Below the pieces are notes generated by a model, which did not search any database, was not told the origin of the DNA, and worked only from the letters and a program-made list of their open reading frames with translations. A stretch of DNA of 64,000 nucleotides, taken from Sporopachydermia quercuum (lineage: Eukaryota; Ascomycota; Sporopachydermiomycetes; Sporopachydermiales; Sporopachydermiaceae). A program made the translations under genes and the position numbers. Numbering within the stretch: position 1 is the first letter of the stretch; every line of letters starts with the position of its first letter. The stretch is taken from contig BCGN01000008.1 of the NCBI GenBank assembly GCA_001599295.1, forward strand, positions 1,236,221 through 1,300,220, read 5' to 3'. Shown piece by piece: positions 51,050-64,000 of this stretch.

Positions 51050-52276
51050 ATGTTGATCAGACTTCATACCATACTAACCGTCGTGTTAGTATGTATTACC
51101 ACGGTATTTTCAGCTCAAGTAACAGTAGACGTTACTGTTGTTAATACTAGAACTATTTGGCAAACATATACTGAGTGGGTGACACGTACTCGTTGGCATA
51201 CTGTTCAATCTACAATATTTCTTCCATATAGACCTACTTCAACGTCTACACGAGCCACACCAACTACTACTTCTACACGAGCCACACCAACTACTACTTC
51301 TACACGAGCCACACCAACTACTACTTCTACAAGAACCACACCAACTACAACGTCTACACGAACCACACCAACTACTACTTCTACACGAACCACATCCACC
51401 ACTACATCGACAAGCTCATCTACTACTAATCCTTACCCTGCATATCCAACTTCTGATGTTGGTACAATCAGTAAAAGGCCGGAATATATTGTATATTCCC
51501 CGTACAATCCCGATTTCACCTGTAAAGACTATGACACCGTTTATAGTGATTTAATTTTGATTAAATCTAGAGGAATTTACAAAATACGTATGTATGGTAC
51601 CGATTGTAATTCAATCCATACTGTGCAACCAGCTGCAGAAATTCTTGGGATCAAGATCATGCAAGGTTTTTGGATTTCTCCTGATGGGGTGGATTCCATT
51701 GACTCTGGTGTTCAGGAATTAATCAATTATGTGAAGCAGGAATCCACTGCCAAATGGTCATTATATCCATTGATTCTTGTGGGAAATGAAGCCGTTTACG
51801 CAGGATATGCTACAGCAGATCAAATGGTTTCTAAGATAAAATCTGTTAAGGCATTGTTACGTGCAGCTGGATATACTGGTCCTGTTACCACGGCTGAACC
51901 ACCAAATATTTATCAAGAAAACCCCAAACTTTGCTTAAACTCAGGTATGGATGTCGTTGGTTTGAATTCTCATCCTTACTTTGATCCTTATAGTACACCA
52001 TCACAAGCTGGTCAATTTACATTATCTCAAATTGCAGCTGGTAAAGCGGCTTGCAATAATATGGACATTGTAATTGTTGAGACTGGATATCCAACAAGAG
52101 GCAAGGCCAATGGAAATCAAGTTCCAAGTCCTCAGAACCAGAAAATCGTCATCCAAGGTATTCTAGATACCGCTGGTACTAATCTTGTTATTTTAACGAC
52201 ATTTGATGATTACTGGAAAGATCCTGGTCCATATGGCATTGAACAATCATTTGGTGCTATTCAACTATGGTCATAG
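51050..52276 (+). CDS. Secreted GH17 beta-1,3-glucanase-like cell-wall protein with Thr/Ser-rich repeats
   Basis: 408 residues. A signal peptide is clear (residues 1-21, LHTILTVVLVCITTVFSA). A short domain with TRTIWQTYTEWVTRTRW follows, then six 9-residue repeats of the TSTRATPTT type (residues about 65-118), likely O-mannosylated. The C-terminal about 270 residues form a GH17 barrel: the general acid/base Glu is in LVGNEAVYAG and the nucleophile Glu in IVETGYPTRG, with NSHPYFDPY between them and a C-terminal F-D-Y-W segment. No GPI-anchor signal: the protein ends after AIQLWS. The Bgl2/Scw4/Scw10/Scw11 group remodels beta-1,3-glucan in the wall. Scw-type proteins with a Ser/Thr-rich spacer are the closest architecture. 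Confidence 0.9.
   Translation: MLIRLHTILTVVLVCITTVFSAQVTVDVTVVNTRTIWQTYTEWVTRTRWHTVQSTIFLPYRPTSTSTRATPTTTSTRATPTTTSTRATPTTTSTRTTPTTTSTRTTPTTTSTRTTSTTTSTSSSTTNPYPAYPTSDVGTISKRPEYIVYSPYNPDFTCKDYDTVYSDLILIKSRGIYKIRMYGTDCNSIHTVQPAAEILGIKIMQGFWISPDGVDSIDSGVQELINYVKQESTAKWSLYPLILVGNEAVYAGYATADQMVSKIKSVKALLRAAGYTGPVTTAEPPNIYQENPKLCLNSGMDVVGLNSHPYFDPYSTPSQAGQFTLSQIAAGKAACNNMDIVIVETGYPTRGKANGNQVPSPQNQKIVIQGILDTAGTNLVILTTFDDYWKDPGPYGIEQSFGAIQLWS
51242..51403 (+). repeat. 27-bp coding minisatellite, six copies
   Basis: Six in-frame 27-bp units encoding TSTR(A/T)T(P/S)TT. The first three copies encode Ala at position 5 and the last three Thr; the last has Ser in place of Pro. The array continues as a partial TSTSSSTT copy. 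Homogeneous neighbouring units suggest recent expansion. Confidence 0.9.
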
Positions 52277-61161: not shown

Positions 61162-62412
61162 GAGTTATTTCCACTATTGACCGAGATATCACTATCTTCC
61201 TGTTTTACTCACATACTTTGAAGGTTGCAGTAGTATGTGCACAACTTGCATATAAACATGTATGAACATGTATATACTTTGCATATACATACATCAAATT
61301 GGAAGTTTATTCGACCACTTGATTCTCGCCAGAGTCTTAAATCCATGTGACCATAGTGAATAGTATTTTCATGAAGATATGTATCAGATATATTTTCTAA
61401 TACTAAACAGGCACTTCTACTTAAGAGAAAGATATATAAACATTGGATAAATGAATAACAGTAAGTTCAAGTGGTACGGAATCTGTATTAAACGCGTAAG
61501 ATGATTGATCGTCAACTATTATTAATATAAATAAGTGTATTATTTAATATGAAAACTGGCTGTCTAATGATACTAGTTTCAAAGCAGACAGTATAGAATA
61601 GTTGGTTACTTTATATGTTTTGAAGCAAGTAATTGTTAGGATAGGGGCACTGAGAGTTGCATAAAATTTTGTACAGATACTGAATCATTTAGACTTTATG
61701 ACTTTCATGCACATAGGTTCAGCCTTAACCTAATATTGTAATTAATAACTGATCACACAATCCTAATTATATGTAACTTCATGTATTTTCCTGTTTATCC
61801 TGCATAAATATGAACTTGAAATATATATTAATGAAATTGTAGATATAAACCTTATTGCGATTGTTTCACTTTACTTGTGTTCACATGAATTCCACACTGA
61901 TTGGGTGGGCTCCGAGCTGCAGGCTGACCCCGCTGGATAGTAATTGATTTTTAGTTTATAATTTCGTGCACAGTGATCAGGATTCTTTAGTTTACTAACT
62001 TCAATTCACTAGAGAGTATTACGATCGTACATAACCTATGAATGGTACATCCAAATCTTTGTACATGGTCTTCTTATCGGTCCATAGATCACCCATCGCT
62101 ATAATCAGAGTAAGGTTAGTATACTTGTCTATCTTTTTGACCTTTGAGCTACTTTTTTCTTTTCTTTTATTATTCTCCTCTAAATCAACCGCTTCGCCCA
62201 ATCTATAAAGATCAATATTCCAAAAACAGAAATATTTATAGAAGACATGCTGTCTACAATCTATGGAAGTCAATATTTCAATGATAGATATATACATTTT
62301 ATATTGTCCCTCCTTAATTACTCAATTGTTGAACGAAACCGACATTGGGTTGCCAGTAACTGAGATTCTGACGAGACAGAAGGATAGGAACTAAATCGAT
62401 AAACAACTCAAT
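61162..62412. other. Intergenic, mostly empty
   Basis: AT-rich, with a short GC-rich patch at 61902-61936. A minus-strand ATG frame at 62019-62297 (92 codons, Lys/Ser/Glu-rich centre) is divergent from the final gene but has no recognisable family. Confidence 0.4.
62019..62297 (-). CDS. Possible small ORF (92 aa) next to the terminal gene, doubtful
   Basis: ATG frame, 115 bp divergent from the 62413 gene. Contains a charged stretch ENNKRKEKSSSKVKKIDKY and a C-terminal GDLWTDKKTMYKDLDVPFIG. Unrecognised; could be a relic of a larger subtelomeric gene or chance. Confidence 0.25.
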   Translation of the reverse strand: MYISIIEILTSIDCRQHVFYKYFCFWNIDLYRLGEAVDLEENNKRKEKSSSKVKKIDKYTNLTLIIAMGDLWTDKKTMYKDLDVPFIGYVRS

Positions 62413-63798
62413 ATGGAGTTAGAAGAAGTACCAGGATTCCAAATTGCTGATCTGATAGATAATCCTGATAATATACCAAGAAACGTTGCTGGCGGGCTAC
62501 CTTGCAAAGTAGGTGTCATATCAGCATATAAGAGTAGTATACGATTACCACAAGATGATACATTCTACTATCAGCTTTGGTCTTTGGCTGAACATTTAGT
62601 TGGGTACGTTTTAACTCTTACCGGTGGTGATGTGTGTGGAAGATTTAATAATTTATACTACGCATTGCGTGTTTATGATGAATCTCCTAGCAAATACTGC
62701 TACACGAAAATCGTACCCTTGAATGGACCACATGCATATGAGGCACGTGTTCAGATGTATGATAATATGTTTTGCAAGACCATAGCTGGGTCGATAATGG
62801 ATTTATATTATAGAACTCAAACCAATGATGGATATATGGATAAAATATTCGTTTTTTATATCGGAACCAGCCGATTAATTAGTGTATGCATTGCTGCAAG
62901 TGATTTAGCATGGCATATAGGACTTCCTGGAGATCTAAAAACTGATACTATAGCTTCTTTTCGAAGTGGTGGTGAAGGTTGCCAGTCTCCTTACAGTGTT
63001 GTCTACAACAAGAAATTAAGACTTCACCCTGATCGTTATCCTGAGTGGGGTTCAAAGAGGGAACCACTTCATTTGACGTGGCATGGTACCCAATCCGGAT
63101 TAACCTACAAATTTGAACAGGTGATTCCTCTCAGACAAGTCAGAGATTCGATTGAGAAAAGTAGCAAAATACTGCCGGGTATCAATCCACGTTCTCCTGT
63201 GAAAGTCGAAGTTATCAAGATTTGTAGACTTGAGGGTTCTATAGAATTGAGTGATGATGTATACAATTCACTATATTACGTTGGCTTGCATATATCATTT
63301 GCTGTCCATGATGGTGGCGGCACAGCTTGGATTGTTGGTAGAGTCAATGATTTTTGTTATAAATTCAAAGTCATTCGAGCTGAGAGACATGACAGGCTTG
63401 ACTATTGTCATATGGTAGGTGTTTTGCATGATTTATACAGAAGGACGTGTCCTTCTGGAAACGTTGATAAAGCATTTGCTATCAGAGTTTCAACTCCTTC
63501 CTTATATGTGTGCTTATACATTGGGCATAGCAAAGAAGTTTGGAAAACGATCGTTGCAAGGGACGAAAATAATCTTATAGATGACATTGAACATGAAGGG
63601 GCGTTAGTTTCCTTTCAAACTGGGGATGCAGCTTGCGAAAGGGGTTACAAAGGTGACGTCAAATGGGATGGCACTAATTTTGTCGAAAATCTTATCAATA
63701 ATGTAGGCAAGTTAGTACCATTTGCATCACTAGTACCCTATGGATCTCAGGTGGCTGTTGTAGGTCAAGCAATAATAAACATTTATGGTGCACATTGA
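62413..63798 (+). CDS. Uncharacterised two-repeat subtelomeric protein (461 aa)
   Basis: Not recognised. The protein is built from two diverged copies of one domain of about 160-170 residues: copy A at about 30-200 and copy B at about 262-420. Matching landmarks are K-V-x-V-I (32-36; 264-268), D-D before the next helix (48-49; 281-282) and G-R-x-N (76-79; 309-312). Further pairs are D-L-Y-x-R-T (130-135; 340-345), a V-C-[IL] strand (158-160; 366-368) and S-F-x-[ST]-G followed by Cys (182-190; 400-408). No signal peptide and no clear membrane segment, though residues 432-458 are fairly hydrophobic. Eleven or more cysteines are scattered. The stop codon is only 103 bp before the telomere-like array and transcription runs toward the chromosome end. 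A fast-evolving subtelomeric gene family is the best inference; no function is proposed. Confidence 0.75.
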   Translation: MELEEVPGFQIADLIDNPDNIPRNVAGGLPCKVGVISAYKSSIRLPQDDTFYYQLWSLAEHLVGYVLTLTGGDVCGRFNNLYYALRVYDESPSKYCYTKIVPLNGPHAYEARVQMYDNMFCKTIAGSIMDLYYRTQTNDGYMDKIFVFYIGTSRLISVCIAASDLAWHIGLPGDLKTDTIASFRSGGEGCQSPYSVVYNKKLRLHPDRYPEWGSKREPLHLTWHGTQSGLTYKFEQVIPLRQVRDSIEKSSKILPGINPRSPVKVEVIKICRLEGSIELSDDVYNSLYYVGLHISFAVHDGGGTAWIVGRVNDFCYKFKVIRAERHDRLDYCHMVGVLHDLYRRTCPSGNVDKAFAIRVSTPSLYVCLYIGHSKEVWKTIVARDENNLIDDIEHEGALVSFQTGDAACERGYKGDVKWDGTNFVENLINNVGKLVPFASLVPYGSQVAVVGQAIINIYGAH

Positions 63799-63901
63799 GT
63801 TTGATTTATTTTTTGCTTTTTATTATATAGTAAAGAGTCGTGGCGGTTCAGCACGGTTATTAGTTGGTAAAGAGTTTTATTGGTTTATTTTGATGGCTTA
63901 G

Positions 63902-64000
63902 GTTGGGAGGTAGTTGGGAGGTAGTTGGGAGGTAGTTGGGAGGTAGTTGGGAGGTAGTTGGGAGGTAGTTGGGAGGTAGTTGGGAGGTAGTTGGGAGGTA
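63902..64000 (+). repeat. Telomere-like tandem array, nine copies of an 11-bp unit
   Basis: Exactly nine perfect copies of GTTGGGAGGTA run to the last base of the window. The G-rich strand points 5' to 3' toward the right-hand end, as in a right telomere. Perfect homogeneity and absence of any other sequence after the array fit a chromosome end; a plain minisatellite cannot be excluded because the sequence beyond the window is not seen. Confidence 0.78.

What the first reader, a model, noticed from the sequence alone, without database searches (positions are those of the whole stretch)
63902..64000. Candidate telomere with an unusual 11-bp repeat unit
Nine identical 11-mers (GTTGGGAGGTA) reach the window edge with telomeric strand polarity, next to a region with a broken gene, a permease and cell-wall genes typical of subtelomeres. 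Yeast telomere units differ greatly by lineage; I do not recognise this unit from the well-known ones (for example Candida 23-mer, Yarrowia 10-mer). It would define the template of this species' telomerase RNA.
Basis: partly seen in the sequence, partly recalled or inferred. Interest (0 to 1): 0.72.

Follow-up and report, generated by a model that had tools for sequence, protein, structure and literature searches.

The report
Yeast telomere with 11-base unit
The window ends in what is almost certainly a yeast chromosome end, whose telomere is built from an 11-base unit that my limited searches did not find in print; the repeat is ordinary in kind, but the same short sequence also sits, more often than chance, between genes across the genome.

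Summary
The telomere reading holds. The same unit ends 9 of the 22 readable contig ends (2 of 24 are withheld), always with the G-rich strand running outwards, joined to different inner sequence. None of the other 13 readable ends shows a telomere-like array. The genome encodes TERT, Rap1 and Tbf1. Array lengths (95 bp at 5 of 9 ends) look like an assembly limit, not biology. Beyond the finding, the unit occurs 44 times inside contigs against 7, 7 and 1 for three control 11-mers, in a preferred register (GTAGTTGGGAGGTA) and mostly outside ORFs, so it probably doubles as a protein-binding site. That site does not fit the published S. cerevisiae Rap1 motif better than shuffled units do. The telomerase RNA was not settled: four interior loci match 18-24 nt of the array and the structural tests disagree. 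Verdict: a new telomere unit of a known kind.

The parts
63902..64000 (+). Terminal telomeric array, nine perfect copies of GTTGGGAGGTA, G-rich strand 5'->3' towards the chromosome end, probably truncated by the assembly
63799..63901 (.). Inner junction between the last subtelomeric ORF and the array
   Evidence: the 20 bases before the array differ at each of the 9 telomeric ends
62413..63798 (+). Subtelomeric ORF, 461 aa, no Pfam family at E 0.01; related sequence lies next to the array at C9L (protein 55.6% over 45 aa; DNA 73% over 262 bp, window 62336-62593)
61684..61872 (.). Subtelomeric block shared with the C4R telomeric end (85% over 189 bp)

Best explanation
It is the start of the telomere at the right end of contig C8 of a yeast that probably reads CTG as leucine. 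Telomerase (TERT plus a telomerase RNA with more than one permuted copy of TACCTCCCAAC) adds GTTGGGAGGTA units to the 3' end of the G-rich strand, and a sequence-specific duplex-binding protein (Rap1 first, Tbf1 second) coats the array. Shown: the terminal array, its polarity, its recurrence on other ends, and the presence of TERT, Rap1 and Tbf1 genes. Inferred: addition by telomerase and the identity of the binding protein. Not settled: which locus is the telomerase RNA.
For: Array flush with the contig end. Same unit at 9 of 22 readable ends, on left and right ends, always with the G strand outwards, with different inner flanks and seven different starting phases. 53 of 53 two-unit matches are at contig ends. 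TERT RNA-binding domain E 3e-30 and RT domain E 1e-13; TERT chains of the PDB from E 7.8e-28. Rap1 DNA-binding domain. Tbf1 with TRF domain and C-terminal Myb. Four interior loci match 18-24 nt of the array, long enough for a template.
Against: 13 of 22 readable ends have no array; some look like assembly breaks in repeats (C10R and C11R share an exact inverted 95-base overlap, C5R and C12R share 241 bases at 97%, C1L, C1R and C8L hold degenerate repeats), the rest are unexplained. No telomerase RNA was identified: RF02462 and RF01050 gave 0 matches in the genome; the 14 controls gave none for RF02462 and only a sub-threshold match in an archaeon for RF01050, so this is weak evidence. No physical end-mapping exists here.
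Confidence: 0.97

Rival explanations
1. An interspersed minisatellite or subtelomeric satellite at which contigs happen to break, not the telomere itself.
For: Short-read contigs do break in repeats, and array lengths look set by the assembler.
Against: No two-unit match lies away from a contig end (53 of 53 at ends). Polarity is outward at 9 of 9 arrays, whereas breaks inside a satellite would leave both orientations; inner flanks differ.
Confidence: 0.02
2. For the interior copies: they are binding sites of a promoter-binding factor with a footprint GTAGTTGGGAGGTA, most simply the same protein that coats the telomere.
For: 44 interior exact 11-mers (106 in all, minus 62 in the arrays) against 7 for the reversed unit and 7 and 1 for one shuffled unit and its reverse. 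Depends on register: 24 against 6 for GTAGTTGGGAG, 18 against 14 for GGAGGTAGTTG. Preceding GTA favoured (G 23, T 21, A 28 of 42). 5 of 42 sites inside ORFs of at least 100 aa, where coverage is 52%, or 40% in the flanks of the same loci. 40 interior 14-mers with at most 1 mismatch against 8 for the control; 14 of 29 mismatches in the first three bases.
Against: The unit scores 8 of 13 against the S. cerevisiae Rap1 motif, no better than shuffled units. No shared gene class seen: of 10 neighbouring ORFs 6 gave unrelated Pfam families and 4 none, and 40 of the 42 loci gave only 4 tRNA matches in Rfam. Only one shuffled control unit was run, and ORFs were called without introns.
Confidence: 0.6
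3. For the interior copies: telomere fragments captured at repaired breaks.
For: Four loci carry 18-24 nt of the array.
Against: Insertions would come in all registers; the enrichment is strongest in one register, with a preferred inner flank.
Confidence: 0.1

Closest known systems
Clavispora lusitaniae / Candida intermedia telomere (TTAGGGAGGTACTGATGTTCT) and Metschnikowia aff. pulcherrima telomere (PMC10100673, passages)
   Same: Share the 8-mer GGGAGGTA with this unit
   Different: Units of 21 and 27 bases with TTAGGG; this unit is 11 bases and has TTGGG. Kinship not claimed: CTG is probably read as leucine here, and those yeasts belong, as recalled, to a clade that reads it as serine
11-base telomere units of Lipomyces suomiensis (TTTTAGTAGGG) and Wickerhamomyces canadensis (ATGGTGTTCTG) (PMC6692504, passages) and Saccharomycopsis fibuligera (TAAGGGTGGTG) (PMC10100673, passages)
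   Same: Same unit length; the L. suomiensis unit was also seen at the ends of several contigs
   Different: Longest strings shared with this unit are 3-4 bases
Yarrowia clade telomeres (10 bases, TTNNNNAGGG in all but one of 13 species) with Tay1 (PMC6746865, abstract and named sections)
   Same: Homogeneous short unit; there the telomerase RNA was found by searching the genome with 1.5 units
   Different: This unit lacks TTAGGG; the telomerase RNA is not settled; Tay1 was not searched for
S. cerevisiae Rap1 sites shared by telomeres and promoters (PMC6510891, passages)
   Same: A telomere sequence that also occurs outside telomeres; a Rap1 homologue is present
   Different: Motif KRTGTRYGGGTGT is not matched better than by shuffled units

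Membership tests
Telomeric repeat of budding yeasts | Tandem G-rich unit at the ends of several chromosomes or contigs, G strand 5'->3' outwards | tested here: met
   9 of 22 readable ends; 9 of 9 arrays with outward polarity
Telomeric repeat of budding yeasts | No arrays of two or more units inside contigs | tested here: met
   0 of 53 two-unit matches away from ends; the longest interior match is 24 nt in another phase, 2.2 units
Telomeric repeat of budding yeasts | TERT gene in the genome | tested here: met
Telomeric repeat of budding yeasts | Telomerase RNA with a template of more than one permuted unit | tested here: inconclusive
   Four interior loci of 18-24 nt (L073, L076, L088, L089); no Rfam telomerase RNA match, structural tests disagree
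Telomeric repeat of budding yeasts | Physical terminal position (Bal31 or long reads) | not testable with these tools
   No reads on hand
Rap1-type telomere binding | Rap1 DNA-binding domain encoded | tested here: met
   PF09197 two stretches, E 4.5e-8 and 2.0e-5; RAP1 chains of the PDB, best E 1.5e-23, two stretches (that these are S. cerevisiae is recalled)
Rap1-type telomere binding | Unit matches the S. cerevisiae Rap1 motif | tested here: not met
   8 of 13 positions; 4968 of 5000 shuffled units score 8 or more
Rap1-type telomere binding | Protein binds the unit | not testable with these tools
   Needs EMSA or ChIP

The most novel reading that the evidence does not exclude
The 11-base telomere unit is locked to the footprint of a promoter-binding factor: one protein with a new specificity (core TTGGGAGG in GTAGTTGGGAGGTA) both coats telomeres and acts at dozens of intergenic sites, so telomere and regulatory sites must have changed together in this lineage, away from both TTAGGG and the known Rap1 motif.
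Probability: 0.35. Interest if true: 0.55.

Novelty: new member of a known kind. Interest (0 to 1): 0.36.

Why it matters
It adds a telomere unit to the very diverse set of budding yeasts and gives the probe needed to find this species' telomerase RNA. The interior copies with a preferred register offer a test of how telomere sequence and the target sites of its binding protein change together.

Tried and rejected
Telomerase RNA. Three registers of the 11-mer were searched in the genome. Any interior match of 18 nt or more must hit at least two of them; the double hits were read, and one place on C12 that the capped list left open was read too (14 nt). Four loci reach 18 nt. L073 (C5, 24 nt): no ORF of at least 100 aa in the first 3.3 kb; best relaxed pseudoknot score, 1 of 60 shuffles as good; but no Sm-like site, mean folding z 0.06, weak hairpin 5' of the template (z -0.60), and 13 annealing bases where the abstract of PMC8211666 gives 1-10. 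L076 (C6, 20 nt): two-armed hairpin ending four bases before the template (z -1.53, 17 of 200 shuffles as good); low folding z further 3', but as low on the opposite strand; no Sm-like site; pseudoknot score worse than most shuffles (54 of 60 as good). L088 (C5, 19 nt): Sm-like site at +523, pseudoknot 4 of 60. L089 (C7, 18 nt): Sm-like site at +554, pseudoknot 31 of 60. Sm-like sites appeared in 6 of 10 loci tested, so they do not discriminate. A stricter pseudoknot scan found none in L073 or L076. Matches shorter than 18 nt were not all read, so a shorter template could lie elsewhere.

Rejected: that array length is biological. Five arrays of exactly 95 bp and an exact 95-base overlap of C10R with C11R fit a word size of 96 (that ALLPATHS-LG uses K=96 is recalled); two arrays are longer (99 and 101 bp) and two shorter (37 and 52), so the limit is not strict. 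Not supported: that interior copies mark ribosomal protein or snoRNA genes (10 ORFs only, 40 of 42 loci). Rejected: resemblance to the S. cerevisiae Rap1 motif. The species was not identified: no collection of eukaryotes is on hand.

Literature; the unit at a word start together with 'telomer', 0 papers; rotation GGGAGGTAGTT, 23 papers, 20 listed, none about telomeres by its title; 5 more G-strand rotations with 'telomer', 11 papers, all listed; 4 C-strand rotations and 1 G-strand rotation with 'telomer', 19 papers, 15 listed. No listed title or abstract reports this unit; the papers themselves were not opened. 3 of 11 G-strand and 7 of 11 C-strand rotations were not searched, and supplementary tables and TeloBase's own data were not readable.

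Full report
OBSERVATION. Window 63902-64000 consists of nine exact GTTGGGAGGTA units. The window is C8:1236221-1300220 of a 16,393,282-base genome in 12 contigs, and C8 ends at 1,300,220, so the array is flush with the contig end.

OTHER ENDS. Both ends of all 12 contigs were fetched. Two of 24 read as N (C4L, C7L: withheld). Of the 22 readable ends, 9 finish in the same perfect unit: C2L, C3L, C4R, C6L, C6R, C7R, C8R, C9L and C10L, with 95, 101, 52, 95, 95, 95, 99, 37 and 95 bases. On all nine the G-rich strand runs 5'->3' outwards, the inner flank differs, and the arrays start in seven different phases. The 13 other readable ends show no such array. The two-unit pattern has 53 matches in the genome, all at contig ends, and 0 for the reversed control.

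WHY THE ARRAYS ARE SHORT. Five of nine arrays are exactly 95 bases long in spite of different starts, and C10R and C11R overlap by exactly 95 bases in inverted orientation. A de Bruijn assembler with words of 96 would do this when it enters a cycle of 11 words (inference; that ALLPATHS-LG uses 96 is recalled). Two arrays are a little longer (99, 101) and two shorter (37, 52), so the limit is not strict. Array length, and the lack of variant units, therefore say little about the telomere in the cell. The overlap also suggests that C10 and C11 are neighbours on one chromosome.

MACHINERY. TERT lies on C1: RNA-binding domain E 3e-30, RT domain E 1e-13, PDB TERT chains from E 7.8e-28. Rap1 lies on C4: two PF09197 stretches, best PDB match a RAP1 chain, E 1.5e-23, in two stretches. 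Tbf1 lies on C3: TRF domain E 1.9e-58 and a weak Myb match below Pfam's cut-off, but the C-terminal Myb matches the chains named trf1 (E 4.5e-28) and TBF1 (E 9.3e-25) (that these are of S. pombe and S. cerevisiae is recalled). CTG codons are used at ordinary frequency (73 of 820 leucine codons by the standard code in 15 window ORFs) and stand at positions 24 and 41 of the THI20-like ORF, which I recall as conserved leucines; the standard code is the likely reading. That the organism is a budding yeast rests on the Rap1 and Tbf1 types and on the telomere itself, not on a named relative.

INTERIOR COPIES. The 11-mer occurs 106 times; 62 lie in the arrays, which leaves 44 interior. The reversed pattern gives 7; one shuffled unit gives 7 and its reverse 1. 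The enrichment depends on register: GTAGTTGGGAG has 24 interior against 6, GGAGGTAGTTG 18 against 14. In the 42 interior sites that I could read (2 of 44 lay beyond the 100 listed rows), the three bases before the unit are often GTA (G 23, T 21, A 28 of 42), the bases after it less so (G 13, T 19 of 42). GTAGTTGGGAGGTA with at most one mismatch has 40 interior matches, 11 of them exact, against 8 for the reversed control; of 29 mismatches 14 fall in the first three positions and none at positions 5, 6 and 11. Only 5 of 42 sites lie in an ORF of at least 100 aa, where ORF coverage is 52% in the window plus nine other loci and 40% in the flanks of the same loci (binomial P 5e-8 and 8e-5; introns ignored). 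A protein-binding site in a preferred register explains this better than captured telomere fragments. I expected Rap1, but the unit matches the published motif KRTGTRYGGGTGT (PMC6510891, passages) at only 8 of 13 positions, as nearly all shuffled units do. The factor remains open.

TELOMERASE RNA. Four interior loci match 18 nt or more of the array: L073 24 nt, L076 20, L088 19, L089 18 (completeness argument under Tried and rejected). L073 and L076 have no Rfam telomerase RNA match up to E 5, and the genome none for RF02462 and RF01050 (these searches have no positive control). The hairpin, pseudoknot and Sm-site tests point to different loci. At most one needs to be the RNA; the others may be tandem binding sites.

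COMPARISON. Budding yeast telomere units are known to be very diverse (PMC10100673, PMC6692504 and PMC8211666, passages; PMC6746865, abstract and named sections). Units of 11 bases are known. The 8-mer GGGAGGTA is shared with Clavispora lusitaniae, Candida intermedia and Metschnikowia aff. pulcherrima. No paper title or abstract that my searches listed reports this unit, but supplements, TeloBase's data and 10 of 22 rotations were not covered, so 'unreported' is provisional.

One place on C12 was read in addition and did not change the count of four loci.

Noticed in passing
44 interior places, e.g. L042, L046, L062, L063, L070: The telomere unit is enriched inside contigs in one register (GTAGTTGGGAGGTA) and mostly outside ORFs, like a transcription factor site.
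   Followed up: partly
window 62336-63798 and C9L (L017): A subtelomeric gene family without a Pfam domain: a 461-aa ORF beside the array, with related sequence beside another telomere.
   Followed up: partly
window 51245-51412: About six copies of a 27-base repeat coding for a Thr-rich tract in a GH17-type protein (ORF 51050-52276).
   Followed up: no
C10R and C11R (L033, L034): Exact inverted 95-base overlap: the two contigs are probably neighbours on one chromosome, and the assembler word size was probably 96.
   Followed up: no
C5R and C12R (L029, L035): The two contig ends share 241 bases at 97% identity, probably an unresolved repeat.
   Followed up: no
L073:2643-3016: By eye, short exons with GTAAGT donors and TACTAAC or CTAACAG near the acceptors; introns may be common in this yeast.
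   Followed up: no
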